A stretch of DNA of 24,882 nt from a virus: IMG/VR virus record IMGVR_UViG_3300036791_001622, positions 1 through 24,882 of that record, one strand, 5' to 3'. Each line of letters begins with the position of its first letter. The stretch's first letter is position 1. Below are positions 1 to 21,585 of the stretch, piece by piece. The position numbers were made by a program, and so were the translations under genes. The notes under the pieces are model-generated. The model was not told the origin of the DNA. It searched no databases and saw only the letters and a program-made list of their open reading frames with translations.

Positions 1-104
1 CCTGACTCCGAGCTTCGCTCGGAGTGGCGAAACTTTCGCTGGACACAGCGGAGCGCCGGGTCGCAAATGTTCCTTACGGGGGTCCTTGACCCCCGAAAAA
101 AAAA
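1..104. other. Non-coding left end with three hairpins and an A-tract
   Basis: No gene is visible before position 151. The stretch holds three perfect inverted repeats: ACTCCGAGC/GCTCGGAGT (5-13 with 17-25, 3-base loop), CGCTG/CAGCG (37-41 with 46-50, 4-base loop) and CGGGGGTC/GACCCCCG (77-84 with 88-95, 3-base loop). The third is followed on the + strand by nine A residues (96-104), and a second A-run lies near 117-124. None has a T-run downstream on the + strand, and on the - strand the T-run comes before the hairpin, so a standard Rho-independent terminator is not supported. Its place directly upstream of the terminase genes makes a packaging-recognition or leader role conceivable, but that is inference. 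Confidence 0.5.
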
Positions 105-150
105 TGGGACAGACTGAAAAAAAACCAGGACCAGAACTGCCCAATGCCCG

Positions 151-597
151 ATGGCGACGACGATCTCGATTCTGTGCTTCTCGGCGGCGGCTATCACCCT
201 CGTGACCTGGCTTTCGATCCGTTCGCAGCGGGCGTCCGAGGCGACGACGCGGACGGTGATGGCGGCCTTGAGCGATACGGTGAGGACGCAGAACCGCACG
301 ACCGAGATGGTGTCGGCCGACCTGACCGCGCTGGCTTCCAAGGAGGCCAAGGAGGCCCGGGAGATGATCGTGGACCTCTACCTTGGCCGCGACCGGGGGG
401 CGATGACGCCGGACTCGCCGAGTACCTCGAGCGAGAGGCAGTCGACGCCGGGGATCGAAACCTACGAAGGGTTGCCGAACAACGTGGTGGAGGCGTTGCG
501 ACGCGAGCAGGAGGAGGAGAGGCCGAACGAGTGGCGAGTGGTCTCCTCGACGCCGCCGAACGGCTCCGAGCCTCTTTTCCCCGCGACGACGGAGTAG
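151..597 (+). CDS. Unknown membrane-anchored protein with helical stalk
   Basis: 148 residues; function not recognised. Residues about 4-23 are hydrophobic (start MATTISILCFSAAAITLVTW) and read as an N-terminal membrane anchor. They are followed by a hydrophilic helical stretch rich in A, T, E, K and R (about 25-80) and a Ser/Pro/Glu-rich tail. Third codon positions are strongly G/C, which supports this frame over the frame starting at 144. No good Shine-Dalgarno sequence lies close to the ATG. It is the first gene of the rightward module, just upstream of the terminase genes. A TM-plus-stalk layout could fit a spanin-like, superinfection or host-membrane protein, but nothing specific supports any of these. 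Confidence 0.6.
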   Translation: MATTISILCFSAAAITLVTWLSIRSQRASEATTRTVMAALSDTVRTQNRTTEMVSADLTALASKEAKEAREMIVDLYLGRDRGAMTPDSPSTSSERQSTPGIETYEGLPNNVVEALRREQEEERPNEWRVVSSTPPNGSEPLFPATTE

Positions 598-827
598 AGC
601 GGCCCAAGCGCCCTTATCAGCGCCGCAACATCGCCGCCTCGCCGGCCTTCGAGCACACCGCCTTCGAGGCCACCATCTTCAAGCTCCTCTCCGCCGCCAA
701 CGGGGACTGGATGGTCACCTTCAAGGTCCCGTCCGAATACCGCGAGGCCGCCACCGTGCTCGGCGACTCCTACGGTCTCGCCCTCGACGTGTCCATCACG
801 CGCAGGCACCATGGCGCCGTCGCCTGA
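531..827 (+). CDS. Small unknown protein upstream of the terminase
   Basis: 98 residues from a GTG at 531. The open frame extends upstream to 144, but that part overlaps the preceding gene and looks like its shadow (Gly/Asp/Arg low complexity). The GTG at 531 is preceded by a purine-rich GGAGGAGGAGAGG (about 510-522). From there the protein looks genuine: a basic linker (RPKRPYQRR) and then a mixed alpha/beta stretch including NGDWMVTFKVPSEYREA. It overlaps the end of the 151-597 gene and, by 17 bases, the start of the next gene, as is usual for translationally coupled phage genes. No family recognised; it may be a small packaging accessory protein, which is inferred from position only. Confidence 0.6.
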   Translation: MASGLLDAAERLRASFPRDDGVERPKRPYQRRNIAASPAFEHTAFEATIFKLLSAANGDWMVTFKVPSEYREAATVLGDSYGLALDVSITRRHHGAVA

Positions 828-1290
828 CCCATGGACGCTCGACTCGTCCGCCCCCGACTGGCTGGAAGCCGTCTGCACCCGCCTCTTGGAGGTCGGCGTG
901 CCTCCGAGCGCGCTGGCCAAGGCCTTCTTCGTCGACGTCGCCGCCATCAAGGATCTCCAGGCCGATCTGCACGTCGAGAAGTTCGGGACCGCCGAGATCT
1001 CAGAAGCCATGTCCTTCCTCATGTGGCACGCCTACCAGGACGCGCTCGAGATCCTCGAATCGGCGCCCTCGGCCACGCGCCGCCAGTTCATCACCACCCT
1101 GCTCTCGCGTCAGTCGGTCATCTTGGGCAAGCAGTCCCCCGAAGAGCTCGGACGCATGCGTGACCAGCTCAGTGATCTCTTCGCCGGCATCGGAGTCCCC
1201 GACCCCCAAGCCGGGTCCATCTATGCAACCTCTCCGTTTACGCCCGTGGACCGAGTTGCTGACGATCCAGAAGAAGGACCTCAAGGTTGA
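811..1290 (+). CDS. Probable small terminase subunit
   Basis: 159 residues. The protein is mostly helical. A segment at about residues 17-52 (WLEAVCTRLLEVGVPPSALA and on) could form a helix-turn-helix-like DNA-binding domain, and residues about 65-125 look like an oligomerisation helical bundle. Size, helical content and position immediately upstream of the large terminase fit TerS, which binds the packaging site and loads TerL. TerS proteins diverge too fast for a motif-based call, so the assignment rests mainly on synteny. The 3' end overlaps the large terminase reading frame (see that entry). It could instead be an unrelated DNA-binding protein. Confidence 0.6.
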   Translation: MAPSPDPWTLDSSAPDWLEAVCTRLLEVGVPPSALAKAFFVDVAAIKDLQADLHVEKFGTAEISEAMSFLMWHAYQDALEILESAPSATRRQFITTLLSRQSVILGKQSPEELGRMRDQLSDLFAGIGVPDPQAGSIYATSPFTPVDRVADDPEEGPQG

Positions 1291-2833
1291 GCGCATCGAC
1301 CTGTCCGAACCGTTCGCCTGGGCCCAGGACGCGCTGCGCATAGAGATCGAGCGCCAGTACAACTTGGGATTGCCGGTCCGCATCATCTGCCTCAAAGGCC
1401 GCCAGCTCGGGGTTTCGACCATGAGCGAAGGCACCCTGTTCAACTGGACCTTCCTGCACCCCGGCACGCGCAGCCTCGTCATCGCGCACGAGACCAAAGC
1501 GGCCCAGCACCTCTTCGACATGACCAAGCTCATGTGGGAGGAGTGGCCGTTCAACCCCCTCTACACCGAGAAGCACAACACCATCAAGTCGCTCGCATGG
1601 GTCGAGACCCGTTCGTCGATGTCGGTCGCCACCGCAAAAAACGCGGGGAGCGGGAGATCCTTCACCTACCACGCCGTACACGCGTCCGAGTGTGCTTTCT
1701 GGGACGAACCCGAGCGTCTCATGGTGGGACTCAACCAGAGCGTGCCCTACAAGCACGGCACCATCGTCATCTTGGAGTCGACGGCCAACGGCGTGGGTAA
1801 CTGGTTCCACGAGGAGTGGCAGCGGGCGGTGCGAGGCGAGTCCCAGTACGTCCCGCTCTTCTTCCCGTGGTTCAAACACGAGGAGTACTGCTTCCCCACC
1901 ACGACACTGAAGTCGTACGAACTGCTGAAGGAAGAACGCGAGCTCGCGCGCGAGTTCGGCCTGTCTCTCGGGCAACTGGCTTGGCGCCGCCACACCATCG
2001 TCAACGACTGCCTGGGCGATGACGAACTTTTCAAACAAGAATTCCCGTGTACCCCCAACGAGAGCTTCCTCTCGACCGGTCGCAACGTGTTCCCGCTCCA
2101 ACGTCTCGACGAGCACACCAGCGTCGACACCGGTGTCAAGGGCATGATGGTCAACGACAAGGGCACCATCAAGTTCATCCGCGACGCCACCGGCCCGCTC
2201 ACCATCTTCAAGTCACCCGGGCGCGATCCCCTCAAGGCCCGCTACGTGGTGGCCGGTGACCCCACCAAGACGACCTACGGCGACAAGGCGTGCATCCAGG
2301 TCATCAACCGCTTCACCTTCGAGCAGGTCGCGGTCTTCCACCAACACTTAGACGCCGTGCCCTTCGCGCACCAGCTCATGATGCTCGCCTACTACTACAA
2401 CACGGCCCTGCTCAACTGTGAGATCGAGGGCCCCGGCTACGCCACCATCGGGGTCATCTTGGACAACTCCTACCCCGACCTGTGGCAGCACCGCTGGGCC
2501 GACAAGGCCCCGGGCAAGGTCTCCACCTCGTGGGGTTGGTCGACCAACTACCAGCGCAAGCACTGGGCCATGGAGAAGGTCAAGTTCCTCTTGGCCCAGA
2601 AGGGTGTCTTCACCATCCACGACCGCATCACCCACGACCAGATGGAGAACTACGTCTACCTCGCCAACGGCGAGATGGGCCCGGCTTCGGACGGCCTCTC
2701 CGACGACGCCGTCATGGCGATGGCCATAGCCGTGGTCTCGACGATGACAGAGGCCACGCTCCCCCACGAGGAGCAGCCCGAGGCCGAGATCCACGACCTG
2801 TTCGACAAACCGCCGTGGGAAGCGGTGTCATGA
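1223..2833 (+). CDS. terL: Large terminase subunit (ATPase and nuclease)
   Basis: 536 residues from the ATG at 1223; the frame stays open to a GTG at 1160, giving 557. The protein cuts concatemeric DNA and pumps it into the prohead through the portal. Visible motifs: a Walker A-like KGRQLGVST (58-66, in the RQxGxST style common in phage terminases); a Walker B-like hydrophobic strand ending in an acidic pair region, HAVHASECAFW (150-160); and a coupling motif ILESTANG (183-190). The C-terminal RNase H-like nuclease has candidate metal ligands D346 (VVAGDPTKT), E400/E402 (CEIEGPG) and D494/D495 (GLSDDAV). The start is uncertain because neither candidate has a clear ribosome binding site; 1223 overlaps the previous gene by 68 bases, 1160 by 131. 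The stop overlaps a 7-codon ORF leading to the next gene. Confidence 0.95.
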   Translation: MQPLRLRPWTELLTIQKKDLKVERIDLSEPFAWAQDALRIEIERQYNLGLPVRIICLKGRQLGVSTMSEGTLFNWTFLHPGTRSLVIAHETKAAQHLFDMTKLMWEEWPFNPLYTEKHNTIKSLAWVETRSSMSVATAKNAGSGRSFTYHAVHASECAFWDEPERLMVGLNQSVPYKHGTIVILESTANGVGNWFHEEWQRAVRGESQYVPLFFPWFKHEEYCFPTTTLKSYELLKEERELAREFGLSLGQLAWRRHTIVNDCLGDDELFKQEFPCTPNESFLSTGRNVFPLQRLDEHTSVDTGVKGMMVNDKGTIKFIRDATGPLTIFKSPGRDPLKARYVVAGDPTKTTYGDKACIQVINRFTFEQVAVFHQHLDAVPFAHQLMMLAYYYNTALLNCEIEGPGYATIGVILDNSYPDLWQHRWADKAPGKVSTSWGWSTNYQRKHWAMEKVKFLLAQKGVFTIHDRITHDQMENYVYLANGEMGPASDGLSDDAVMAMAIAVVSTMTEATLPHEEQPEAEIHDLFDKPPWEAVS

Positions 2834-2849
2834 GTATCCTGGAACCCCG

Positions 2850-3215
2850 GTGAAGGAATATCAGTTCCGCTGCGTTGCCTGTAAGAACCTCTTCATCACC
2901 TTCTCTCGCACCGAGGTGCCTCCGTGCCCGGTCTGTGCCAACCCCGCTCCCACCCGCCAGTACATCTTCCAGACCAGAGCCTCGGTCCCCGAGCACTTCA
3001 ACGTCGCCACCGGTCAGTACGTCAACAACACCCGCGAACTGCGCGACGCCCTGGCTCGGCATTCGGACGAGCAGTCAGAGCGCACCGGCATCGAGCACAA
3101 CTTCGAGTACCTGACGCCGGCCGAGATGCGCGACCCGAGCGCGCACGGAGTCACCGACGAGGGTCTCGACACCCAGGAGAAGGCGTGGCGTGACACCGAG
3201 GAGCGCAGCAGATGA
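2850..3215 (+). CDS. Zinc-ribbon protein
   Basis: 121 residues from a GTG. The N-terminus carries a four-cysteine zinc ribbon, FRCVACKNLF then PCPVCANPAP (CxxC at about 8-11 and 26-29), similar in layout to the FmdB-type regulatory ribbons. The rest is hydrophilic, helical and charged, with no other recognisable domain. Zinc-ribbon proteins between terminase and portal are found in other tailed phages, but their role is not established. The GTG overlaps the stop of a 7-codon ORF (MSILEPR, 2830-2853), whose own ATG overlaps the terL stop, so terL and this gene may be translationally coupled. Its stop overlaps the portal start by four bases (ATGA). Confidence 0.8.
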   Translation: MKEYQFRCVACKNLFITFSRTEVPPCPVCANPAPTRQYIFQTRASVPEHFNVATGQYVNNTRELRDALARHSDEQSERTGIEHNFEYLTPAEMRDPSAHGVTDEGLDTQEKAWRDTEERSR

Positions 3216-5071
3216 CCAACGTTCTCGACACCCAAACAGACGCCCCCGCCCCACCGGACCCGAACTACGACGACTTCGAACTGACCCAACGCCTGGCTCA
3301 GATGTACGAGCTGGCCCGCCAGGAGAAGAAGAAGTACCAGGCCAATTGGCGGCGCAACTACCTCCTCACCACCAACAAGCAGTACAGCCTCGACACCCAG
3401 TCGCCGTGGACCCCCAACGTCACCGACTCTGAGATCTGGCCCATCCTCTCGTCGCGCATCGCCTGGATGACCGACCAGAAGATCCAGCCCAACGTCGCCC
3501 CCTCCGCGCTGCCCGGTGACCCCTACGCCCAACACGTCCGCACCCTGGCGGACCACATGGAGCAACTCTTCGAGTCCGAGTTCGCCAACCAGGGCTGGGA
3601 CAAAGAAGTCATCTTGGCCCTGTGGGACGCCGCGCAGTTCGGTTGCGGGCTGTTCAAAGCCGTCTGGGACTCGGGCCTCGAAGAGGGCCTGGGCAACATC
3701 TGCCTCAAACGCGTCGACGTGTGGAACTTCTACCCCGACCCCAACGCCCGCTCCCTCGACGAGTGCACCTACATGTTCGAGGTCGAGAAGATGACCTTCG
3801 ACCAGATACAGCGGCGATTTCCGGGGGCCGACCTCGAGTCCATCAAAGCGGCCTACCTCTACGGGCAACGTGGTGACGACATCGTCCGGCCGTCCCAATC
3901 GTCCAGCAGCCAATATCCAATGGCTATGCCCGGCAATCTCCCTGGCAGCACATCGACCACCTGGGGCCTCCCCGGTCAGTCCTCCAAGTCGACCGACCAG
4001 ATTCTCTTTGAAGGCGTCAACGTCTACACCTGCTGGATGCTCGAGAACTGGGAGGAGACCCGTGAGACCACCGACCCGACCCACGATGAGGACGAACGGG
4101 TTGTCTACGACGAATGGCGCTGTGTTGTCTACACCGGAAACGTTGTTCTATTCGATGAGCTGGCTCATGATCTCTATGAGCACTCTCGTCACCCCTACAC
4201 CCGTTACGTCGACGAGGAGATGGGGGAGTTCTGGCCGACTCCCATTGTTAGCCATCTGGCTCCCTGTCAAGTTGCAATCAATCGGTTGTTGGCCTCTTAC
4301 CAAGGCAACGTGGAGCTCGTCGGCAACCCCATCTTCTTAGACGTCAAGGGCAGCGGCCTCGAACGCACCTCGATCAACAACCGCCCCGGGGTCCGCCTCA
4401 CCTTGGACCAGAAGATGGCCAACGCGCAGGGCCAGAAGCCCATGTGGCTCGAGCCCCCCAAGATGAGCCAGGACGTGCAGAACCTCATCCAGTTCTGGAT
4501 CAGTCGAATGGAGAACATCAGTGGATTGTCCGGGGTCCAGAAGGGCCAGCAACCGAAGGACCGCCAAGCCGCACAGACCATGCAGGCCACCCAAGAAGCC
4601 GGCTTCGTCCGCATCCGTTCTTCTGTTCGTAATCTCGAACGCACCCTCGGCGAAACCTACCGACTGCTCGCCCACATGATGATCCAGAACTACGACGTCC
4701 CCCGACAGGTCGCCATCGTGGGGCCCAACGGTGAGAACTCAGCCCTCCTCTTGGCTTCGCGCCACTTCTACTCCCCGTCGTTCCGGGGCAAGGTCGAACC
4801 GATGAAGTTCTCCCTCCTCGTCCACGCCGGCGCCGACAACCCGACCAGCCGCCAAGCGCGTATCGCAGAAGCCGACGCGCTCGCCGCCATGAACATGATC
4901 GACCGCCCTGCGGTCTTAGAACAGCACAACTTCCCGCACTGGCAGTCCATCGACCAGAGGATGCAGCAAAAGGAGATGGCGATAGCCCAGGCCCAAGCCG
5001 CGGGAATGGCGGCGGGTCGCGGCGGTGGCAAGTCCCAACCGCGTGGGCCCGGCACCGGGCATAGCCATTAA
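3212..5071 (+). CDS. Portal protein
   Basis: 619 residues. Forms the dodecameric ring at the capsid vertex through which DNA enters and leaves. It has the usual portal features of podoviruses: an N-terminal helical region with NWRRNYLLTTN, a stretch on the fold AAQFGCGLFKAVWDSGLEEG (about 142-161), the FYPDPNARSLDE loop (near 173-184) and a long C-terminal helical region (about 400-600) with KGQQPKDRQAAQTMQATQEA. The C-terminus is Gly/Gln/Ala-rich. The length is in the range for P22-type portals rather than the shorter siphovirus ones. The start overlaps the preceding stop (ATGA). Codons in roughly 3880-4300 use noticeably more A/T at third positions than the flanks, hinting at mosaic exchange within the gene. 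Confidence 0.9.
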   Translation: MTNVLDTQTDAPAPPDPNYDDFELTQRLAQMYELARQEKKKYQANWRRNYLLTTNKQYSLDTQSPWTPNVTDSEIWPILSSRIAWMTDQKIQPNVAPSALPGDPYAQHVRTLADHMEQLFESEFANQGWDKEVILALWDAAQFGCGLFKAVWDSGLEEGLGNICLKRVDVWNFYPDPNARSLDECTYMFEVEKMTFDQIQRRFPGADLESIKAAYLYGQRGDDIVRPSQSSSSQYPMAMPGNLPGSTSTTWGLPGQSSKSTDQILFEGVNVYTCWMLENWEETRETTDPTHDEDERVVYDEWRCVVYTGNVVLFDELAHDLYEHSRHPYTRYVDEEMGEFWPTPIVSHLAPCQVAINRLLASYQGNVELVGNPIFLDVKGSGLERTSINNRPGVRLTLDQKMANAQGQKPMWLEPPKMSQDVQNLIQFWISRMENISGLSGVQKGQQPKDRQAAQTMQATQEAGFVRIRSSVRNLERTLGETYRLLAHMMIQNYDVPRQVAIVGPNGENSALLLASRHFYSPSFRGKVEPMKFSLLVHAGADNPTSRQARIAEADALAAMNMIDRPAVLEQHNFPHWQSIDQRMQQKEMAIAQAQAAGMAAGRGGGKSQPRGPGTGHSH

Positions 5072-5084
5072 AGGAATGTGCTCA

Positions 5085-5654
5085 ATGGATCAGTGCCCTA
5101 AAGGACATCCGTTTACTACCGACAACCTCATCCTCCGTCGTAACGGTGGTCGGCGTTGTCGGATATGCAAGAACCAAAGCGAGCAGAATCGCTATTGGAG
5201 AAAGCAAGAAGCGGCAGGTAAACAGCGCGTCAGGGTGACCAGAACAACACTTGCCAATATTCTTGATCGTTGTTCAGTCGATGAGAACGGATGTTGGTTG
5301 TGGCAAGGCTTTCTGAATGTACATGGGTATGGTCGTACTAAATGGGAAGATCGTAACTGGTTAGTTCATCGTTTGGTCTATGAACTGATGGAAGCACCTG
5401 TGCCTGATGGTCTCTTCATCGACCACCTTTGCCGTGTACGTCATTGTGTCAACCCGGGACATATGGAGGTAGTTACAAACAGAGAGAATGTTCTTCGTGG
5501 CGAAACCATCCCAGCAGCCCACCTCGCCAAGACCCATTGTCACCGAGGCCATGAGTTCAACCAGGAGAACACCTATCTCTTCGGGCCAGAAATGAAATGG
5601 CGGCAATGCAAGCCTTGTCAGAAGATAAATGCTGAACAACAAGCGGCTCACTGA
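5085..5654 (+). CDS. HNH homing-type endonuclease with two zinc fingers
   Basis: 189 residues. The ATG at 5085 is chosen over 5076 and an in-frame start at 5025 because AAAGGA (5070-5075) lies nine bases upstream of it. The central HNH nuclease has H95, the FIDHLCR core (D113-H114), N123 and H126 within CVNPGHMEV, and the trailing ENVLRG motif (134-139). Flanking it are two related four-ligand zinc fingers: CPKGH...CRIC (C4, H8, C25, C28) and CHRGH...CKPC (C152, H156, C175, C178). The gene is visibly AT-richer than its neighbours and sits between portal and WhiB genes, which fits a free-standing mobile endonuclease that nicks or cuts phage DNA lacking it. Related to the HNH gene at 21586-22152. 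Confidence 0.92.
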   Translation: MDQCPKGHPFTTDNLILRRNGGRRCRICKNQSEQNRYWRKQEAAGKQRVRVTRTTLANILDRCSVDENGCWLWQGFLNVHGYGRTKWEDRNWLVHRLVYELMEAPVPDGLFIDHLCRVRHCVNPGHMEVVTNRENVLRGETIPAAHLAKTHCHRGHEFNQENTYLFGPEMKWRQCKPCQKINAEQQAAH

Positions 5655-5655
5655 G

Positions 5656-5937
5656 ATGCAGGCGCGGCCCCCCTTCCTTCTCCTCCCCCAAGAGGCCTGG
5701 ATGGACGCCGCCTACTGCAAGGGACAGGACCCCGACATCTTCTACCCCGAGGACGGGCACTATCTCTTGGCCCAACCGGCCAAGGAGATCTGCAACTTCT
5801 GTCCGGTCCAGCTCGCCTGCCTCGACTACGCGCTCGAGCACCACATCGACGACGGCATCTGGGGCGGGACCACCCGCAACCAACGCCGGCGCATCCGCCG
5901 GGCCCGTGCCCGCCTGCGGCTTGAAAACGCTTCCTAG
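5656..5937 (+). CDS. WhiB-like iron-sulfur transcription factor
   Basis: 93 residues from ATG 5656; an upstream ATG at 5629 gives 102 and overlaps the HNH gene. It has all WhiB hallmarks: four cysteines C21, C46, C49 and C55 in the C...CxxCxxxxxC pattern that binds a 4Fe-4S cluster, the turn motif GIWGG (67-71) and a basic C-terminus (RNQRRRIRRARARLR) for DNA contact. WhiB proteins occur only in actinobacteria and their phages and bind the primary sigma factor's region 4. Phage WhiBs such as that of mycobacteriophage TM4 are known to interfere with host WhiB function. Here the gene lies inside the head operon rather than an early region, so a late switch or host-takeover role is inferred. Strongest host marker in the window. 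Confidence 0.93.
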   Translation: MQARPPFLLLPQEAWMDAAYCKGQDPDIFYPEDGHYLLAQPAKEICNFCPVQLACLDYALEHHIDDGIWGGTTRNQRRRIRRARARLRLENAS

Positions 5938-5958
5938 CCCCACTCACACTCGGCCCCT

Positions 5959-6177
5959 ATGGCCGAGTACACCGGGCCGGCAACCGACAACGAAGCCGAG
6001 GTCATCGCATCGAACGAGGGCCACAAGGTCCCTGACGTCTTCGCCACCGGCACCGACCCGCGCGACGAGCGGCACGACACTTCGCTGAAGTTCGGCAACG
6101 CCCACCCCAAGCGCATCCACAACGACGTCTACGGTCGTTACTCCGATGTTGACGAGGGTGAGAGCGAACCCTGCTGA
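5959..6177 (+). CDS. Small hydrophilic unknown protein
   Basis: 72 residues, acidic and polar (ends DVDEGESEPC), with no membrane segment and no recognised family. The segment DTSLKFGNAHPKRIHNDVYG is the best-ordered part. No clear ribosome binding site precedes the ATG. Its TGA overlaps the next ATG by one base (TGATG), so it reads as the first member of a coupled run of tiny genes that ends at 6586. Confidence 0.6.
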   Translation: MAEYTGPATDNEAEVIASNEGHKVPDVFATGTDPRDERHDTSLKFGNAHPKRIHNDVYGRYSDVDEGESEPC

Positions 6178-6263
6178 TGGCGTTCAAGTCCCTCATCTTC
6201 AAAACCGGTAACTCGCGCAAGGGCAAGCGCGGGCACGTCCGACGATCTCCGAGGAGGAAGTAA
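6177..6263 (+). CDS. 28-residue basic microprotein
   Basis: Encodes MAFKSLIFKTGNSRKGKRGH followed by VRRSPRRK, a very basic peptide. The ATG overlaps the previous stop (TGATG) and the TAA abuts the next ATG (TAAATG). Its 3' end GAGGAGGAAG also serves as the Shine-Dalgarno sequence for the next gene. High positive charge suggests nucleic-acid binding. It could also be an untranslated spacer, but the tight overlaps on both sides and G/C third positions favour coding. Confidence 0.5.
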   Translation: MAFKSLIFKTGNSRKGKRGHVRRSPRRK

Positions 6264-6392
6264 ATGGCTCGACGGCACAGTGGCTTCAATCTTCCCGTGC
6301 GAGGCAAGACCCACGGTTCGGGTATGAAGCGGGGCCGCCGTGGCGTCAACCCCAAGATGCACCGGGTCAAGAACCGCGGTGCCGGCCGTTAG
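6264..6392 (+). CDS. 42-residue Arg/Lys/Gly-rich microprotein
   Basis: Starts MARRHSGFNLPVRGKTHGSG and ends with a basic Arg/Lys/Gly-rich stretch; nearly one third of the residues are basic. A strong ribosome binding site, GAGGAGGAAG (6251-6260), lies four bases before the ATG. The TAG overlaps the next gene's GTG (TAGTG). No family is recognised. Composition suggests DNA or RNA binding, perhaps charge neutralisation in the head; this is inference. Confidence 0.6.
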   Translation: MARRHSGFNLPVRGKTHGSGMKRGRRGVNPKMHRVKNRGAGR

Positions 6393-6586
6393 TGCCCTTC
6401 AAGTCGGAGGCGCAGCGTCGCTATCTCTGGGCCAACGATCCGAAAGTGGCAGAGGCCTGGTCGCACGGCAGGTCGTCGGTAACAGGCAAGAAGGAATCAC
6501 CATCGCAACAAGGTAAGCGGAAGGGAGGTGGGAGCATGGCACGAAGGAAGGGCCGCCACGGCGGACGCCACAAGCGGGGGAAGTAA
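6392..6586 (+). CDS. Basic 64-residue protein of the FKSEAQRRYLWAN type
   Basis: Starts at GTG 6392, overlapping the preceding stop. The N-terminal PFKSEAQRRYLWANDPKVAE matches a short motif seen in many small phage and prophage head-region proteins (pattern FKSxAQRRxxxAxxPxxA), whose function I do not know. The C-terminal half is low-complexity and basic, ending MARRKGRHGGRHKRGK. An internal ATG at 6536 has a very strong ribosome binding site (AAGGGAGGTGGGAG, 6521-6534), so the basic tail could also be made separately. Last of the coupled run of tiny genes. Confidence 0.7.
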   Translation: MPFKSEAQRRYLWANDPKVAEAWSHGRSSVTGKKESPSQQGKRKGGGSMARRKGRHGGRHKRGK

Positions 6587-6624
6587 CCCCCAGGACTCCC
6601 ACCAACTGGGTTAAGTCCAAGTCG

Positions 6625-6679
6625 TGGGCTCAGGTCGAGTCCCGAGATACCCCATCTCCCCCAACCCGGCCTGAGCCCA
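6625..6679 (+). promoter_or_regulatory. Intergenic inverted repeat, possible structured leader or terminator
   Basis: In the 121-base gap between genes, TGGGCTCAGG (6625-6634) is the perfect reverse complement of CCTGAGCCCA (6670-6679). Inside the loop a second stem GAGAT/ATCTC (6644-6648 with 6654-6658) can form. No T-run follows, so a canonical terminator is not shown. The gene at 6708 begins 28 bases later behind GAAAGGA. It may be a processing or termination structure separating the packaging block from the head block. Nothing else is seen in this gap. Confidence 0.5.
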
Positions 6680-6707
6680 TGATTAGGCCCTAACCGAAAG
6701 GATCGAC

Positions 6708-7121
6708 ATGGCCCAACATGTCATCACCATCGTGGTCACCGCCGATGACCCTGACTTCTCCAGTGCCGTCGAGGACGCCGTCGCCGCCCTCCAGGCCGAC
6801 GGCTACACCCCGACCGAGGTTCGGGTGGCCTCCGATGCGGGCGAGTCGGTGGTTGCCGTGCCCACCGAGGAGTCCGAGACCCCGCCCGACGGTGGTAGCG
6901 GTGGGGAGGAGGCACCCCCGGCCACCACCGCGGTGGAGAACCCCGGCATCAACGGCGACTTCCAACCCAGCGGCTGTGCCACACCCACCGTGGCCGAACT
7001 GACCTCCCTCCCCGTCACCGCCGAGCCCGACACCGCCTGGGGGACCGGTTCCTACATGGCCGCTTCCGACGGCGACGCCTACTGGGACGGAACAGCTTGG
7101 ACCTCCGGTAAAGCCCCATAG
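6708..7121 (+). CDS. Small head-region protein with Pro/Glu/Gly-rich linker
   Basis: 137 residues. Residues 1-48 form a compact alpha/beta unit (MAQHVITIVVTADDPDFSSA, then helix and strand). Residues about 49-85 are a low-complexity linker rich in E, P, G and T. The C-terminus has an aromatic turn motif, DAYWDGTAWTSGKAP, similar to repeated W/DG motifs in phage structural proteins. A ribosome binding site (GAAAGGA) precedes the ATG. Position before scaffold and capsid suggests a head or decoration protein; no specific family recognised. Confidence 0.65.
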   Translation: MAQHVITIVVTADDPDFSSAVEDAVAALQADGYTPTEVRVASDAGESVVAVPTEESETPPDGGSGGEEAPPATTAVENPGINGDFQPSGCATPTVAELTSLPVTAEPDTAWGTGSYMAASDGDAYWDGTAWTSGKAP

Positions 7122-7135
7122 AAAGGAAACAACAC

Positions 7136-7285
7136 ATGCCCGATCAACGTGCCGCATCCAACTACAGCGGTAAGTCCGGCAAGACCAACGTCCAGATGCA
7201 GGGCCAGACCAACAGCGGGGCCTACGGCTCTGACCTGAACATGAAGCGTCGGACACCGGCTCCGCCCTCCGACGAGCGCCCCTGA
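7136..7285 (+). CDS. 49-residue unknown protein
   Basis: Starts MPDQRAASNYSGKSGKTNVQ; polar, Gly/Ser/Asn/Gln-rich with a proline-rich end (PAPPSDERP). A good ribosome binding site, GAAAGGAAA (7121-7129), lies seven bases before the ATG. This supports a real gene despite its size. No family recognised. It lies between two head-region genes and probably belongs to the same late transcript. Confidence 0.65.
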   Translation: MPDQRAASNYSGKSGKTNVQMQGQTNSGAYGSDLNMKRRTPAPPSDERP

Positions 7286-7291
7286 CCCTCC

Positions 7292-7720
7292 ATGGCGGCG
7301 TCGAAATCCTCCAGCGACGCTCCGGCCACCTGGCGTGATGCGCTCTCCGCCGCATCCCAAGCCCTGGCCGCCGGCCTCGCCGCGCCCGATGCCGACGTCA
7401 AGTTCGGCCTCGCGCTCATCGGCGCGCTCGCCACGCATCAAAAGCGGCAGGTTTCGGGTCCCGGTGGGGCAGCCGGTCCCGTTGGGGCTCCCGGCGGGGG
7501 TGTGCCAGCTTCACCCCCAGCCGGTGGCCCTGATGAGGGCGGGGGGGCACCCCCTCCGGGTCTCGCACCAGCGGCTGGACCGGCCGGTGGGGGAGCCCCA
7601 AACTCGGCCATGCCCTCTCAGGCGGCCCCTGGAGGCCCCGTCCCCGGCGGTATGAGCCAAGGCCTCTCGCCCAATCCCGACGAGCTGCGGCGCGTCCTCG
7701 CCGACGTGGCCGGCAAGTAG
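7292..7720 (+). CDS. Gly/Pro/Ala-rich head-region protein
   Basis: 142 residues. Residues about 12-50 are predicted helical (WRDALSAASQALAAGLAAPD and on). Residues about 54-120 are a disordered Gly/Pro/Ala stretch. A short C-terminal helix (NPDELRRVLADVAGK) ends the protein. The stop directly abuts the scaffold candidate (TAGATG), so the two are translationally coupled. It could be a scaffold-associated or internal head protein; that is inferred from position. No known family recognised. Confidence 0.6.
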   Translation: MAASKSSSDAPATWRDALSAASQALAAGLAAPDADVKFGLALIGALATHQKRQVSGPGGAAGPVGAPGGGVPASPPAGGPDEGGGAPPPGLAPAAGPAGGGAPNSAMPSQAAPGGPVPGGMSQGLSPNPDELRRVLADVAGK

Positions 7721-8641
7721 ATGGCAGAGCTCCCCGAAGCCAACGAGCCGAGCGTCGATCCCGGCGTCTCGAGTGAAGACCTCGACGCCTGGCTCGCCGA
7801 GTTGAACCCCCCTGCCGAGGCCGAGGCCGAGGGCGAGGCTTCAGCCGCGGTCGAGGAGGAGGAGGCCGATGATGATCAAGACCAACAGGACCAGCCAGAG
7901 CACCAGGATCATTTCGTCGTCGCCGGCAACGAGATCGCCCGGGCCGACATCGAACGACTCTACGAATTCGACCGCTACCTACGCGACAACCCCGATGCCG
8001 CTGCTCGGGTGGCCGAGGCCGTCGCAGCCCGAGCACCCGTCGAGTCCTCTGTTCCCGAGGCCCAGACCCCCACGCCCGCACCGCAGTACGAGGATCCGAC
8101 ACCACCGGACTATCTCGACCTCGACGACCCGACCTCCCGCTTCATGTGGGAGTCCCACGTCAGCACCCAACGTGCCATCTTCGACAACGAACAACGTGTC
8201 GCGAACTGGGTCGCCCAACAGAACCAGATCCAACAGAACCAGATCCAACGCCAGGCCGCGGCCGACATGGAGGTCGCCCTCTCCGACTTCCGCTCGCGTT
8301 ACCCCGCGCTCGACGACGGCGACATCGCGACCGTCCGCAACGCCGCCACCACCTTCATCCCCTCGATGATGGAACAACTGCCCCCGGTCGCCGCCCTCAC
8401 GCGTTCGATGGAGGTGGCCGCCTGGGCCGACGCCGACCTGCGCCCGCGCCTTGGTGGTGACTCTCCATCGGTACCCAGCCAAAAGGCGCGTTCGGTCACG
8501 CGCAAGCAACGACTCTCTTCGATATCAGGATCCCCCCGTTCTGCCCCAAAGACAGAAGACCGCGTCCAGTACTCCACTGACAAGGACATGGTGAACGCCC
8601 TTGCCAATGCGATTGCTGAACAAGGATTCAACGGCAACTAA
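7721..8641 (+). CDS. Probable capsid scaffolding protein
   Basis: 306 residues. Fits the scaffold pattern: immediately upstream of the major capsid gene, a highly acidic disordered N-terminus (EEEEADDDQD, about residues 46-55), a central helical region with a Gln-rich coiled coil (NQIQQNQIQRQAAADMEVAL, about 167-186) and a basic C-terminal part (RKQRLSSISGSPRS), which in scaffolds often binds the capsid protein. Residues 65-95 (FVVAGNEIARADIERLYEFD) resemble segments seen in scaffolds of other podoviruses. No protease motif is visible, so there is no sign of a fused maturation protease. No strong ribosome binding site; expression probably relies on coupling to the preceding gene. Confidence 0.7.
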   Translation: MAELPEANEPSVDPGVSSEDLDAWLAELNPPAEAEAEGEASAAVEEEEADDDQDQQDQPEHQDHFVVAGNEIARADIERLYEFDRYLRDNPDAAARVAEAVAARAPVESSVPEAQTPTPAPQYEDPTPPDYLDLDDPTSRFMWESHVSTQRAIFDNEQRVANWVAQQNQIQQNQIQRQAAADMEVALSDFRSRYPALDDGDIATVRNAATTFIPSMMEQLPPVAALTRSMEVAAWADADLRPRLGGDSPSVPSQKARSVTRKQRLSSISGSPRSAPKTEDRVQYSTDKDMVNALANAIAEQGFNGN

Positions 8642-8652
8642 AAGGAGCAGAC

Positions 8653-9621
8653 ATGGCGGTCACGCCGATCGGAACCAACACCGTCACCGCGCTGTCCCGG
8701 CGCCTCATCATGCCGCGCATCGTGGACAACGTGTACAACTCGAATCCCTTGTTCTTCCGTTGGTACCACGCCAACAAGTTCACCCAACAAGGTGGCACGC
8801 AAATCGAACAACCGCTCATGTACTCGCGCATGTCGGCCGGCGGTTCGTACCAGGGCTACCAACTCCTCACCGTCACCCCGACCGACAGCATCCAGAACGC
8901 GGCCTTCCCGTGGGCCCAGTACTACACACCGGTCACCGTCGACGGCCTCACTCTGTTGCGCGCGGACAGCCCCCTCGCCATCGCGGACTTCGTCGCCACC
9001 CAGTTCAAGCAGGCCGAGATGGACATGGCCGACAACCTGGGCGCCGGCCTGTGGTCCGACGGCGCCAACGCCAACGACATCATCGGCATGCGCCAGGTCG
9101 TCGACAACGGCACCATCGCCAGCCAGTACGGGGCCATCAACCACAGCGGCAACACCTGGTGGAACGCCCAGATCGACTCGACCACCACCACCATGACCCT
9201 GGTCGCCCTCCAGAATCTCTTCGGTTCGTGCACCCAGGGCGGCCGGGCCCCGACGGTCATCTTCTCGACCCAGGCCAACTACAACCGCTACTGGAACCTG
9301 AATCTCACCCCCCAGCAATTCCCGGTCCAGCCGGGTGGCAAGGACATGCAGCTCGCCCAAGCAGGTTTCGAGAACCTGCTCTTCAACGGCGTCCCCTGGC
9401 TCGTCGACTCCCACATCCCCACCTCAGGGTCGGAGGGCAACATCTTCTTCATCAACGAGGACTACGCCCAGATCGTCACCGCCAGCCGGGCCGACTTCCA
9501 CCTCCAGGACTTCATGACCCCGGTCAACCAGGACGCCATGACCGCGCTGTTGCTCTGGGCGGGCAACCTGGTCTTCGGCAATATCCAACGCCAGGGCAAG
9601 TTCACGGCAATTTCTGCCTAG
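8653..9621 (+). CDS. Major capsid protein
   Basis: 322 residues behind a strong ribosome binding site AAAAGGAG. Likely HK97-fold shell subunit. Supporting features are position after the scaffold, moderate size, uniform codon usage, an N-terminal helix with RLIMPRIVDNVYNSNPLFFR, a beta-rich E-loop-like part (about 43-75), a long spine-helix candidate (ADFVATQFKQAEMDMADNLG, about 112-131) and a C-terminal A-domain-like segment (PTVIFSTQANYNRYW; GVPWLVDSHIP; GNIFFINEDYAQIV). The last of these, a strand with IFFINxxY followed by the C-terminal strands, is typical of capsid proteins. No specific named family can be assigned without profile searching. Confidence 0.87.
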   Translation: MAVTPIGTNTVTALSRRLIMPRIVDNVYNSNPLFFRWYHANKFTQQGGTQIEQPLMYSRMSAGGSYQGYQLLTVTPTDSIQNAAFPWAQYYTPVTVDGLTLLRADSPLAIADFVATQFKQAEMDMADNLGAGLWSDGANANDIIGMRQVVDNGTIASQYGAINHSGNTWWNAQIDSTTTTMTLVALQNLFGSCTQGGRAPTVIFSTQANYNRYWNLNLTPQQFPVQPGGKDMQLAQAGFENLLFNGVPWLVDSHIPTSGSEGNIFFINEDYAQIVTASRADFHLQDFMTPVNQDAMTALLLWAGNLVFGNIQRQGKFTAISA

Positions 9622-9633
9622 AAAGGTAACCCC

Positions 9634-10089
9634 ATGCCAGTCGACCTACTCACAAACCCAGGTGCCCTGTTCGGCGAGACCTACATAGGTGGCGGCCAGG
9701 TCGTCGAGTACTACCCCAACGGCGACACCGTCGCGCTCACCAACGGCCAGCTCGTCTCGCTCATCGCCATCGTGGCTCCTTCCCTCGGGCCCGCCACGGT
9801 CAAGCGCTCACCCACCACCGCGGATGGCTTCATCCTCGGCTGTGTCATCAACGCCCCGACTGGTGGCTATCCAGTGGGCAGTCCCGTCGCCGTCTGCACC
9901 CGTGGCTTCGCTCTCGCCCTCTTCATCGCCAACACGACAGCAGGTCACTTCGCCAACGTCGGGGCCACCACGGCGGGCACCTTCGTCGACAGTGCCACGG
10001 CCACCAACAACCTCACCATGGGCACCATTCTCTCCACGGTCACCGTCGCCGGTTCGGCCCTCGTCCCGGTGTACATCGGCAGGACATAA
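9634..10089 (+). CDS. Probable capsid decoration or cement protein
   Basis: 151 residues, beta-rich and hydrophobic with many Ala, Thr, Val and Gly. It follows the major capsid gene with a GAAAGGTAA ribosome binding site. The pattern PVGSPVAVCTRGFALALFIA followed by a run of short strands resembles small capsid-cement proteins such as the DUF2190 type in general style, but the match is only by eye. It has two Cys and no signal peptide. Likely coats or stabilises the shell; alternative: a head-fibre base. Confidence 0.55.
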   Translation: MPVDLLTNPGALFGETYIGGGQVVEYYPNGDTVALTNGQLVSLIAIVAPSLGPATVKRSPTTADGFILGCVINAPTGGYPVGSPVAVCTRGFALALFIANTTAGHFANVGATTAGTFVDSATATNNLTMGTILSTVTVAGSALVPVYIGRT

Positions 10090-10098
10090 AGGAGTTAG

Positions 10099-10674
10099 AT
10101 GACGACCATTCTGCCCCAAGCTTCCGAAGTCATCCTCGACACCGGGCTCCAGTACTACGTCGAGAACCGCTCCGACACCCGCCTGACCACCGGCGACAAC
10201 AAGACCGACCTGCTCCGTTACAACCGCGTCGTCTACCGCTGTGAACCGGGTGAGAAGGTCATCGTGCCCTGGGCCGTGGTCGCCCTCTACTTCGGCGACC
10301 CGCGCAGCCAGATGGACAGGATCGTCGAAGCCGAAGACAGCCAGGGCACCCACCGGGTCCCCGCCCGGGGCAACGAGTTGCTCCGGCTGTCGGTCTACTA
10401 CGGCGTGTACGAACAAGGTGTCGAGGCCATCGCCGCGGTCGTCCCCAACGTCGTCATCACCACCCTCGCCGGCGTCGAGATCATCCCCCCCGTCTTCGAC
10501 CCCGAGTGCGAGCACATGTACGGCTTCCAGCGCTCCTCGCAGAAGTCAGAGGACGTCGCCACCCTCATCGCCAGCCTGCAGGAACAGGTCGACGCGCTCA
10601 AGGCATCGCAGCACTCCATGGCTCTGCACGGTGACAACGACGGTGCCATCCCCGAGGACAACCCAGGAATTTAG
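10099..10674 (+). CDS. Unknown head/neck-region protein with C-terminal coiled coil
   Basis: 191 residues behind AAAGGAG. Residues 1-140 are mixed alpha/beta (VVYRCEPGEKVIVPWAVVAL; ELLRLSVYYGVYEQ). Residues about 145-177 form an amphipathic helix (KSEDVATLIASLQEQVDALK) suited to coiled-coil oligomerisation. The tail is acidic. It is the last gene before a strong hairpin pair, so it probably ends one transcriptional block. No family recognised; a minor head or connector protein is the likeliest role by position. Confidence 0.6.
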   Translation: MTTILPQASEVILDTGLQYYVENRSDTRLTTGDNKTDLLRYNRVVYRCEPGEKVIVPWAVVALYFGDPRSQMDRIVEAEDSQGTHRVPARGNELLRLSVYYGVYEQGVEAIAAVVPNVVITTLAGVEIIPPVFDPECEHMYGFQRSSQKSEDVATLIASLQEQVDALKASQHSMALHGDNDGAIPEDNPGI

Positions 10675-10681
10675 AAGATCG

Positions 10682-10749
10682 CCCACGTCTCACACCGTGG
10701 GTACACACTCTGCCCTGCCTCTCTTCCGACACGGGGGGCAGGGCAGAGT
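10682..10749 (+). terminator. Two consecutive hairpins between capsid and tail blocks
   Basis: In the 87-base gap, CCCACG/CGTGGG (10682-10687 with 10696-10701, 8-base loop) is followed by a perfect 13-bp stem ACTCTGCCCTGCC/GGCAGGGCAGAGT (10707-10719 with 10737-10749, 17-base loop). No T-run follows (CATATAGCGACC), so it would be a U-less terminator, or a processing or translation-control structure. The next ATG (10762) starts only 12 bases after the stem and has no ribosome binding site, so the structure may also affect its initiation. Confidence 0.6.
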
Positions 10750-10761
10750 CATATAGCGACC

Positions 10762-11124
10762 ATGCGCAACGTATCGACCTACTCCAGCCTCACAACGGAC
10801 GAGCTGAAAGAAGAGCTCGTCACGATCAGCGCCGTCCTCAGTGCCGAGTACGAGTCCCTCGGCATGGCCCTCGCCGACTACCACCGCGACTTCCTCAACG
10901 ACTACGCCGGGGCCCCTGAGTCCTCTGCCGCGGCCAAGAACCGGGTGGCCGCCTACGCCAACCAGGTGGCGGGGTCCGAGATCATCACCACCCGTGCGCG
11001 CATCAACGCCCTTGTGCTGTGCCGGGACCTCCTGGTCTTCTTAGCGGGAGGGCAAGCCCCTCCGGCACCGCCGCAGAACATGGCCACGATGGGAATGGAT
11101 GACGACGGGTTACCGGTGGTCTGA
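10762..11124 (+). CDS. Unknown helical protein upstream of the tail hub
   Basis: 120 residues. Residues about 10-85 are strongly helical (LTTDELKEELVTISAVLSAE; ALADYHRDFLNDYAG), followed by a second helix (SEIITTRARINALVLCRDLL) and a Pro/Gly/Met-rich disordered end. No clear ribosome binding site lies before the ATG, which is 12 bases from the hairpin. Its stop overlaps the next ATG by one base (TGATG). No family recognised; gene order suggests a small tail or neck assembly protein. Confidence 0.6.
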   Translation: MRNVSTYSSLTTDELKEELVTISAVLSAEYESLGMALADYHRDFLNDYAGAPESSAAAKNRVAAYANQVAGSEIITTRARINALVLCRDLLVFLAGGQAPPAPPQNMATMGMDDDGLPVV

Positions 11125-12812
11125 TGGCACAGCCGCCGCCGAGACAGCCCAAGCAATCACCCCTGCAGTGGGTGCACATCGACGACTTCTCGCCCGGCTG
11201 CTACGACGGCTCCAACATCGCCTCTGAGCAACCGGCCCTCTCCACCGTGCCCCTCGGAGCGGCCGACCTGACCCAGACCTACGCGTGTTCGTCGATCGCC
11301 GGCGGGGCGCTGGGCCCCCTCCCCGCGCTCACCCAACAATGGAACTACTCGGCCCTCGGCGGCGGGCTGCCCGGTGCCTCCACCTACTCGGTCATCACCG
11401 CCTTCATCGTCGTGCCCCAACTCAACACCGGCAACTACGAGGTCGTCATCGTCACCGAGTCCGACGACGGCTCCAATCATTTCGTCAAGGCGTTCTCCTT
11501 CGTCCCCGCCACCACCGTCGTCACCGGCATCGCGGGCCCGACCAACACCTCGGGGTCCACGGGCGGGGGGATCTTCGGTGCCCCCTACCCAGCCTTCACC
11601 CGCATGACCAGTGGCGGGACGGGCAACCCGCCCCCGATTCTCATCTTCCCCGGTGCGGTCGCCACCGACGCCAATGGGGTCTCGGGCCACCTGTGGGTCT
11701 ACCCCTCCCTGTCCTCCCCCACCACCTTCAGCGCCCAGGACCTCGTCACCGCCGGATCCACCAACTCGGGCCAGATGATCACCTACGGCAACCGGGTCAT
11801 CTGCATGGTGGGCAAGACCTATTCGTGGCCGACCGGCAGCGGCGTCAACACCAACGAGAACTTCAACTACACCGACCCCCCCGAGTCCTCCTCCTACGGC
11901 AACCAGCAGACCATCATGGGCATCGAGATCCCCTGGGGCTACGGGGCCTGGGGAACCATCTCGGTGGGGGAGCTCATCCTCATCAAGAAGTACGGCGGTG
12001 CCGTCATCTTGAACGGCGACATCAACGTGCCCTCTTCGATCATCCGCATGCCGGGCGTCCAGGCAACGGGTGACATAGTTGGCCGCGCCGAGGCCACCAG
12101 CATCGGTCTGGTCTACTGCTCCCAAGACCGGGGCGCGTGGATATGGAACGGGGGCAACACGGCCAACAAGATCAGCGCCAACATCGACGACAACTTCTTC
12201 GACCTGGAACTCAACCGTGTCGGCTCCTCCAACTACGGGTTCTACTGCTATCAATGGCAGAAGTGGGTCATGTTCTCGAACAACATCGTCTACGACACCA
12301 CGACCGGCGGTTGGTGGAAGCTCCAGCCCTCACGCGGCCAGGCCGGGGCGGCGGGCCGTGAGATCTTCTGGTACAGCCTCACTCAGAACGGCAATCAGAT
12401 GGCGACCGCCCCGTTACGCCTCGACTCCAACTCCGAGGTCTTCATGTCGGTCTTCGACAACCGCGTGCCGGCTTCGTCGTACCAGTGGACCTCGCTCCCC
12501 ATCCACGTCGTCAACGACGCCGACCGTGTCATCGACGTGCGCCAGGTCGTTATCAGAGCCAGTGACCCGACCAACAGCGGCCACGCTGTCCTCCAGGTCG
12601 TCATCGGTTCTTTCAACGTCAACTCCACCGAGACGATCCATGCCACCCCCACCCCGATTCGCCTCAACGTCGGCGGGGCTGGGGGGACCAATCTCACCTA
12701 CGACATTCCCTTCCAGATCGTGTGCTCGAACACGTCGGGCAATTCGGCCCCGATCATCCACTCGATCGACATCGGCTACACCGTCAGAGCGTCAGTAGGA
12801 GTGAACAACTAA
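11124..12812 (+). CDS. Probable tail hub/nozzle (stabilisation) protein
   Basis: 562 residues, almost entirely beta-structure with regularly spaced Gly, Trp and Tyr (for example WGYGAWGTISVGELILIKKY; GLVYCSQDRGAWIWNGG; WQKWVMFSNNIVYDTTTGGW). The blade-like repetition suggests a beta-propeller. This matches the general form of P22 gp10-type hub proteins that plug the portal channel and connect the adaptor to the needle or spikes. The neighbouring adaptor candidate supports this. A C-terminal domain (about 430-562) looks like a separate beta-sandwich. The start overlaps the preceding stop. Alternative: a tail-spike or fibre base. Not confirmed by any specific motif. Confidence 0.6.
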   Translation: MAQPPPRQPKQSPLQWVHIDDFSPGCYDGSNIASEQPALSTVPLGAADLTQTYACSSIAGGALGPLPALTQQWNYSALGGGLPGASTYSVITAFIVVPQLNTGNYEVVIVTESDDGSNHFVKAFSFVPATTVVTGIAGPTNTSGSTGGGIFGAPYPAFTRMTSGGTGNPPPILIFPGAVATDANGVSGHLWVYPSLSSPTTFSAQDLVTAGSTNSGQMITYGNRVICMVGKTYSWPTGSGVNTNENFNYTDPPESSSYGNQQTIMGIEIPWGYGAWGTISVGELILIKKYGGAVILNGDINVPSSIIRMPGVQATGDIVGRAEATSIGLVYCSQDRGAWIWNGGNTANKISANIDDNFFDLELNRVGSSNYGFYCYQWQKWVMFSNNIVYDTTTGGWWKLQPSRGQAGAAGREIFWYSLTQNGNQMATAPLRLDSNSEVFMSVFDNRVPASSYQWTSLPIHVVNDADRVIDVRQVVIRASDPTNSGHAVLQVVIGSFNVNSTETIHATPTPIRLNVGGAGGTNLTYDIPFQIVCSNTSGNSAPIIHSIDIGYTVRASVGVNN

Positions 12813-14016: not shown

Positions 14017-14027
14017 AGGAGGTTGCG

Positions 14028-14870: not shown

Positions 14871-14874
14871 GGAC

Positions 14875-15708: not shown

Positions 15709-15712
15709 CTAG

Positions 15713-19687: not shown

Positions 19688-19691
19688 ATCG

Positions 19692-20003
19692 GTGAGCACG
19701 CACCAGGAGACGACATCGCCGCAACGCTGGCCTCCTCCCGACGTCCCCCACCACTTGACCGTGCGTCCCCCCGCGGGCACCCGTGTCCTCATCACCCGTC
19801 TCATGTACAAGGTGAACCAGGTCTCCGAACCCAACTACGTCGTGGCGGGGGTGCTCGGCATGCCACCGGTGCAGCTCTCCCTCTACATGCGTGGCCGCGA
19901 ACCCATCCGCTCCCAGCATCTCGAGAAGATGTGCCGCGTGTTCGGTTGCGAGCCCGAGGACGTGATGGGGTGGGTCGAGGTCGATATCGCCGAGGTCCGC
20001 TGA
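19692..20003 (+). CDS. Small HTH (XRE-like) DNA-binding protein
   Basis: 103 residues from a GTG four bases after the previous stop. A disordered N-terminus is followed at about residues 30-92 by a Cro/C1-type fold: LITRLMYKVNQVSEPNYVVA, then the probable HTH VVAGVLGMPPVQLSLYMRGR, then HLEKMCRVFGCEPEDVMGWV, which is the usual closing part of XRE domains. Likely a DNA-binding regulator. It is the last rightward gene and faces the leftward lysis genes across a 30-base gap, so it would be made late. Target unknown. Confidence 0.75.
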   Translation: MSTHQETTSPQRWPPPDVPHHLTVRPPAGTRVLITRLMYKVNQVSEPNYVVAGVLGMPPVQLSLYMRGREPIRSQHLEKMCRVFGCEPEDVMGWVEVDIAEVR

Positions 20004-21553: not shown

Positions 21554-21585
21554 ACGGCCGACACCACATGGAGGTGACGACAACC

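What the first reader, a model, noticed from the sequence alone, without database searches (positions are those of the whole stretch)
5656..5937. WhiB-like protein encoded inside the structural operon
The ORF has C21/C46/C49/C55 in canonical spacing, GIWGG and a basic tail. Known phage WhiBs (mycobacteriophage TM4) interfere with host WhiB. Here the gene is on the same strand between portal and head genes, so it may be made late and act on the host sigma factor at or after the structural switch, or form part of a phage switch from early to late. It also gives firm evidence of an actinobacterial host.
Basis: partly seen in the sequence, partly recalled or inferred. Interest (0 to 1): 0.6.

Follow-up and report, generated by a model that had tools for sequence, protein, structure and literature searches.

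The report
Phage WhiB regulator in capsid operon
An uncultured, probably temperate phage of actinobacteria carries a copy of a host-type iron-sulphur gene regulator (WhiB) right after its portal gene inside the virion-building operon, and its relatives keep it there, which suggests the regulator is made late in infection, unlike the early-region WhiB genes of known phages.

Summary
The ORF at 5656-5937 is a true WhiB-like (Wbl) protein: PF02467 E = 2.8e-21, all four cysteines, GIWGG, a predicted Wbl fold, and the aromatic residues that grip region 4 of sigma-A. It lies on the same strand inside a tight structural operon: TerS, TerL, portal, [HNH], WhiB, small ORFs, scaffold, major capsid protein. 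The HNH gene between portal and WhiB is a recent insertion, seen only here and in one closely related circular genome. In HNH-free relatives WhiB usually abuts or overlaps the portal stop codon. Every inner-clade relative with sequence past the portal carries it there; an outer clade carries it 0.5-1.5 kb downstream. More distant relatives lack it, or (one phage contig in an Acidimicrobiia genome) carry it on the opposite strand outside the operon. Seven informative known phages show no such placement. Late co-expression is well supported but inferred. Most likely it is a late-made ligand of host sigma-A that reprograms host transcription. WhiB alone is not 'firm' proof of an actinobacterial host, but independent evidence points to Acidimicrobiia. 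Verdict: a known family in a new, conserved late-operon setting. By-catch: a candidate structured RNA in the outer clade.

The parts
5656..5937 (+). whiB-like gene, 93 aa, Wbl protein with C21/C46/C49/C55, GIWGG and basic tail
   Evidence: Pfam PF02467 E 2.8e-21; AlphaFold model pLDDT 81, best PDB matches WhiB, WhiB1 and WhiB3 in sigma-A4/RNAP complexes
5629..5655 (+). alternative upstream in-frame start (9 extra codons) overlapping the 3' end of the HNH gene; judged not the main start
   Evidence: M at 5656 aligns with the overlapping start of HNH-free relatives
3212..5071 (+). portal protein (P22-like); in relatives its stop codon abuts or overlaps the whiB start
   Evidence: PF16510 E 8.1e-32; phrog_156; overlap table
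5085..5654 (+). free-standing HNH endonuclease gene inserted between portal and whiB
   Evidence: PF13392 E 6.6e-12; GC3 0.47 against 0.82-0.88 in the flanking genes; otherwise at this place only in the close relative G001
5959..6177 (+). small conserved gene directly downstream of whiB
   Evidence: follows whiB in nearly all inner-clade relatives long enough to show it; 21-nt gap
811..1290 (+). presumed small terminase subunit
   Evidence: position upstream of TerL, conserved in the lineage; no family match
1160..2833 (+). large terminase
   Evidence: phrog_2 E 3.4e-25
7721..8641 (+). presumed scaffold protein
   Evidence: position directly before the major capsid protein; conserved; no family match
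8653..9621 (+). major capsid protein
   Evidence: phrog_9953 E 1.6e-57; Mx8-type relatives

Best explanation
The gene encodes a phage Wbl protein that is transcribed and translated with the virion structural genes, directly behind the portal gene, so it builds up in the late phase of the lytic cycle of a temperate phage. It most likely binds a [4Fe-4S] cluster and docks on region 4 of the host primary sigma factor, as host WhiB1/WhiB2/WhiB3 do. It would thereby occlude or redirect host Wbl-dependent promoters (for example division/septation genes, as proposed for WhiB of phage TM4) while the cell is turned over to virion production, perhaps also excluding superinfection. Shown: family membership, fold prediction, conserved ligands and contact residues, operon position and its conservation, purifying selection. 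Inferred: late timing, cluster, sigma binding, target promoters.
For: PF02467 match. W15, C21, F29, C46, C49 and C55 are identical in all 16 phage copies; G67, W69, G70 and G71 in all 15 that reach them (one is cut off); position 30 is Tyr or Phe. F29, Y/F30 and W69 align with WhiB1 F17, F18 and W60; Ala substitution of the WhiB3 counterparts F31, F32 and W76 abolishes sigma-A4 binding (PMC10245118). Foldseek best hits are WhiB/WhiB1/WhiB3 chains bound to sigma-A4 or RNAP, TM-score up to 0.83 on the target. dN/dS is below 1 in every unsaturated pair, 0.03-0.51. WhiB follows the portal in all inner-clade relatives that reach that far: in 12 of 15 HNH-free inner-clade copies the start lies within -10 to +8 nt of the last base of the portal stop, including TAATG and TTGA overlaps. 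No promoter-like site in 2700-9700. One WhiB per record in the records searched whole. The lineage is temperate: tyrosine integrase and a Cro/CI-type HTH gene in the circular relative G001. Phage WhiB overproduction is mildly toxic in mycobacteria and WhiB-TM4 represses host whiB2 (PMC11797047; PMC8612146).
Against: No expression, cluster or binding data. The sigma-70 consensus scan cannot exclude an actinobacterial promoter inside the portal gene. In the outer clade WhiB is separated from the portal by 0.5-1.5 kb that holds a conserved structured element in most members, so there it could have its own promoter. The target cannot be named: the tree (82 columns) does not resolve which host Wbl class it came from.
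Confidence: 0.5

Rival explanations
1. Late-gene activator or feedback factor: the WhiB:sigma-A complex activates the phage's own late promoter, so the structural operon boosts its own transcription once switched on.
For: Fixed inside the operon it would regulate; Wbl proteins can activate promoters together with sigma-A (WhiB7, WhiB3; PMC10245118); conserved A-tracts upstream of the first operon gene in the window and G001; basic tail.
Against: No AT-hook RGRP and no WhiB3-type Arg-rich loop in the sequence. The A-tracts were compared in only two close genomes. WhiB-less relatives (for example G409, G414) keep the TerL-portal-capsid gene order, so such a factor is not generally needed.
Confidence: 0.22
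2. Expressed early or in lysogeny from a promoter inside the portal gene (or, in the outer clade, in the portal-whiB interval), acting like TM4 WhiB in superinfection exclusion.
For: Known phage whiB genes lie mostly in early, integration or replication regions (PMC8612146); the outer clade has a long interval without conserved ORFs before whiB.
Against: Start/stop overlap with the portal in the inner clade; no promoter-like site.
Confidence: 0.13
3. Virion-borne WhiB: made with the portal, packaged and injected, acting on host sigma-A at the next infection.
For: Placement between portal and scaffold in a lineage-wide manner; one copy per record.
Against: No direct evidence; no known WhiB is packaged as far as I know; the protein keeps the plain single-domain Wbl signature with no extra domain.
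Confidence: 0.06
4. Passenger or moron gene with no role in the phage cycle, caught in the operon by chance.
For: It evolves faster than the portal (36-66% against 63-89% identity over the inner-clade relatives other than the closest genome); whiB is optional in more distant relatives.
Against: Retained in every inner- and outer-clade record that reaches it; invariant cysteines and interface residues; dN/dS well below 1.
Confidence: 0.05

Closest known systems
WhiB-TM4 (gp49) and cluster K/F mycobacteriophage WhiBs
   Same: Phage-encoded single-domain Wbl proteins; toxicity and repression of host whiB2 reported
   Different: Encoded in the integration/early rightward region, not among structural genes; TM4 gp49 is non-essential (PMC3203893)
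Actinobacterial host Wbl proteins (Streptomyces WhiB, Mtb WhiB1, WhiB3)
   Same: Four-Cys ligand pattern, G(I/V)WGG, aromatic sigma-A4 contact residues, predicted fold
   Different: No AT-hook (WhiB7) and no RGRAR loop (WhiB3); about 35-38% identity; encoded in a phage late operon
Gordonia phages (Monty, PokyPuppy and relatives), closest annotated phage WhiBs
   Same: 45-48% identity over 70-74 aa
   Different: Neighbours under or beside the match are Cas4-type exonuclease/endonuclease genes, not portal or scaffold
Freshwater and marine uncultured actinophages with whiB
   Same: whiB used as an actinophage marker (PMC10202952, PMC6802176, PMC3861242)
   Different: A portal-adjacent position was not reported in the passages read; the one key paper (Ghai 2017) was not held

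Membership tests
WhiB-like (Wbl) family, PF02467 | Profile match above the curated cut-off | tested here: met
   76.3 bits against 23.6
WhiB-like (Wbl) family, PF02467 | Four conserved cysteines with CxxC | tested here: met
   C21, C46, C49, C55; invariant in 16 phage homologues
WhiB-like (Wbl) family, PF02467 | G(I/V)WGG turn and basic C-terminal tail | tested here: met
   GIWGG 67-71; 9 K/R in the 22-residue tail
WhiB-like (Wbl) family, PF02467 | Wbl fold | tested here: met
   Model pLDDT 81; Foldseek to WhiB, WhiB1 and WhiB3, E down to 7e-6, TM-score up to 0.83 on the target. Only one of five models was confident (81, then 63 and lower)
WhiB-like (Wbl) family, PF02467 | [4Fe-4S] cluster | not testable with these tools
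   Ligands present; cluster needs biochemistry
WhiB-like (Wbl) family, PF02467 | Binding to sigma-A region 4 | not testable with these tools
   Contact residues equivalent to WhiB1 F17, F18, W60 kept (F29, Y30, W69)
WhiB7 subclass | C-terminal AT-hook RGRP | tested here: not met
   Not in the sequence
WhiB3 subclass | Arg-rich RGRAR loop between the sigma-contact Phe pair and the second Cys | tested here: not met
   FYPEDGHYLLAQPAKEIC has no Arg; feature as in PMC10245118
WhiB-TM4-type phage WhiB | Encoded in the early/integration region | tested here: not met
   Lies between portal and scaffold/capsid genes, conserved
WhiB-TM4-type phage WhiB | Represses host whiB2 by binding its promoter | not testable with these tools
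   No host or expression data

The most novel reading that the evidence does not exclude
A whole uncultured temperate phage lineage uses a captured host Wbl protein, made together with its portal, as a sigma-A-bound late factor that drives or locks the late transcription programme: a phage late regulator built on an iron-sulphur sigma-factor ligand.
Probability: 0.2. Interest if true: 0.7.

Novelty: new variant of a known kind. Interest (0 to 1): 0.4.

Why it matters
Phage WhiB proteins are among the commonest regulators of actinobacteriophages, yet their role is largely unknown, and studied cases sit in early or lysogeny regions. A lineage that keeps WhiB behind the portal, start against stop, gives a clean prediction about timing (late) and makes the question of what phage WhiBs do testable: host shut-off, superinfection exclusion or late-gene activation. 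It also adds evidence for phages of Acidimicrobiia, a mostly uncultured class of actinobacteria.

Tried and rejected
Portal profile against 84,980 bacterial/archaeal genomes: no relative found. CRISPR-spacer-like matches of window 1-20000 in 395 genomes of the Acidimicrobiia class: the strongest are whiB itself and one phage capsid region; short 29-37-nt hits look like chance. WhiB phylogeny to find the donor host class: unresolved with 82 columns; AU tests reject neither one clade for inner plus outer WhiBs (p 0.34) nor for the inner ones (p 0.30). An apparent grouping of the outer clade with Mtb WhiB1 in a FastTree tree was not reproduced in the careful tree, so a separate origin is not claimed. 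tRNA-Gly 3' end beside the G001 integrase as a host marker: matches of 91-98% in hundreds of genomes of the class, too conserved to name a host. Promoter and terminator scan: nothing above chance. NCBIfam: no match. Ghai et al. 2017 on freshwater actinophages is not held. WhiB alignment A1 was too divergent for a contig scan; a closer alignment was used.

Full report
What is there. The ORF at 5656-5937 (+) encodes 93 aa and is a true WhiB-like protein: PF02467, 76.3 bits, E 2.8e-21, with PHROGs WhiB families in support. The predicted structure (pLDDT 81; only one of five models was confident) matches Streptomyces WhiB and Mtb WhiB1 and WhiB3 in their sigma-A4/RNAP complexes best. The residues that align with WhiB1 F17, F18 and W60 are F29, Y30 and W69. 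In WhiB3 the equivalent residues F31, F32 and W76 each abolish sigma-A4 binding when changed to Ala (PMC10245118).

Context. The window is an IMG/VR virus record of 24,882 bp. The gene is in a compact rightward operon: presumed TerS, TerL, a small gene, portal (PF16510), HNH, WhiB, small genes, presumed scaffold and major capsid protein, with gaps of 1 nt before and 21 nt after WhiB. No promoter-like site was found in 2700-9700, where shuffles give 1.2 on average; such scans are weak for actinobacteria.

The HNH gene is an insertion. Its GC3 is 0.47 against 0.82-0.88 in portal and WhiB, and among the relatives it lies between portal and WhiB only in G001, a circular genome (37,449 bp, exact 127-bp end repeat) 79-94% identical to the window in aligned blocks. 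In both, the WhiB start follows the HNH stop as TGAGATG.

Conservation of the position. Scans of IMG/VR with the portal gave 20 and then 37 loci, many of them the same contigs. In the inner clade (portal 63% identity or more) WhiB follows the portal in every record that continues past it, including one found later (L191). Of 15 HNH-free inner-clade copies, counting near-identical contigs once, 12 have the WhiB start between -10 and +8 nt of the last base of the portal stop, with TAATG, TAGTG or TTGA overlaps; two are at +15/+16 and one is at +179. Start codons were chosen by me, and several are TTG or GTG. Such overlaps are typical of translational coupling (general knowledge), here an inference.

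In an outer clade (portal about 56-62%) WhiB lies 0.5-1.5 kb behind the portal, still before the scaffold gene where the record is long enough to show it. In more distant relatives (portal about 26-45%) no WhiB is found in the record; for two of them the records are 36.9 and 37.9 kb long. A further distant phage contig (G347:C27, 36,033 bp, 77-bp end repeat), binned in a genome of the Acidimicrobiia class, has WhiB on the opposite strand outside the structural genes, and with GIYGG instead of GIWGG.

Is the placement unusual? A survey of 2951 actinobacteriophages describes whiB neighbours as replication, integration and hypothetical genes (PMC8612146). Of ten phage regions I opened, five show whiB by replication, recombination or DNA-modification genes (Wesak, MooMoo, prophiGD22-1, Marky, ReqiDocB7), Chymera has it among regulators and hypothetical genes, and Adat has it just after endolysin and holin. 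VWB lists only hypothetical proteins and two records have no annotation, so those three say little. Among the other close viral WhiB loci, those with a large ORF just upstream were checked: of six such proteins four matched a family, namely ParB-like, DNA methyltransferase, UvsX-like recombinase and a terminase-like ATPase; none was a portal. So portal-adjacent WhiB was seen only in this lineage, within a limited sample.

Selection. Nei-Gojobori dN/dS lies between 0.03 and 0.51 in unsaturated pairs; several dS values are near saturation, so the low ones are rough. The four cysteines, W15 and F29 are invariant in 16 copies, and W69 in the 15 that reach it. WhiB diverges faster than the portal.

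Host and life style. Nearest host WhiBs by pattern search are mostly Acidimicrobiia MAGs; the search returned the best 80 of 200, so this is a trend. In 395 genomes of that class the strongest DNA matches of the window are whiB itself (81-82% over about 80 nt at best), with weaker matches to the capsid gene of the G347 phage. G347 also carries six other WhiB genes, as an actinobacterium would. G001 has a tyrosine integrase and a Cro/CI-type HTH gene and the 3' part of a tRNA-Gly close to the integrase, so it is probably temperate. I do not accept WhiB alone as firm host evidence, because a soil virus with whiB was CRISPR-linked to Acidobacteria (PMC6172770).

How it most likely works. Shown: a Wbl protein under purifying selection, with cluster ligands and sigma-contact residues, fixed in the structural operon of a lineage. 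Inferred: late synthesis, [4Fe-4S] cluster, docking on sigma-A region 4, and an effect on host promoters. I put 0.5 on a late host-directed transcription modulator, 0.22 on a late-gene activator, 0.13 on early or lysogenic expression, 0.06 on a packaged protein and 0.05 on a passenger.

By-catch. The outer-clade interval holds a conserved block of about 230 nt without a long ORF in seven records. Its consensus fold has 15 of 42 pairs with changes on both sides, against 6.3 +- 1.6 in shuffles (0 of 500 as high), but the structure was derived from the same seven sequences. A covariance model finds it in three further contigs (E 4e-30 to 2e-36), which were first picked by an exact match to a 25-base pattern; in one of them it lies upstream of terminase genes. 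No Rfam family other than a tRNA matches in the loci scanned. The block is absent from the window, G001 and the other inner-clade records searched. It may be a structured RNA or an origin-like element (it holds a DnaA-box-like TTATCCACA); this is a lead only.

Noticed in passing
L034:5967-6195, L035:2294-2533, L037:4499-4717, L038:7230-7446, L039:7907-8147, L040:5201-5429, L041:8620-8860 (+); also L183:57-271 (+), L184:13225-13465 (-), L185:10293-10524 (+): Conserved block of about 230 nt behind the portal gene (before whiB where whiB is seen) in the outer clade, with covarying consensus structure, a DnaA-box-like TTATCCACA and no Rfam match; also in three other phage contigs, once upstream of terminase genes. 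Candidate structured RNA or origin element.
   Followed up: partly
L136:2259-5417 (-), genome G001: TerL of the close circular relative is interrupted in frame by about 334 aa with a weak LAGLIDADG match and an intein-like start (C) and end (N before S), inserted just before the ECAFWDE motif; the window's TerL is uninterrupted.
   Followed up: partly
window 21568-22152 (+) and 5085-5654 (+): Two HNH endonuclease genes of one family (about 39-42% identical to each other); further homologues sit at other places in relatives (L012, L034, L041, L046), so HNH genes move around this lineage.
   Followed up: partly
L136:16088-16163 (-) next to integrase L136:14431-15573 (-): tRNA-Gly gene whose 3' part of about 52 nt matches host tRNA-Gly genes at 91-98% while the 5' part diverges: a likely attP core.
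   Followed up: partly
window 1-150: Two A-tracts (A9, A8) and a GGGGGTCC/GACCCCC inverted repeat before the first operon gene, conserved in G001; possible late promoter region.
   Followed up: no
window 23765-24502 (-): Collagen-like Gly-X-Y repeat protein, probably a tail or fibre gene.
   Followed up: no
window 19692-20003 (+): Small Cro/CI-type HTH gene at the end of the structural operon, conserved in the inner-clade genomes checked; another regulator in a late position.
   Followed up: no
L034:6147-6222 (-): tRNA-Met (CAT) gene in the portal-whiB interval of one outer-clade phage.
   Followed up: no
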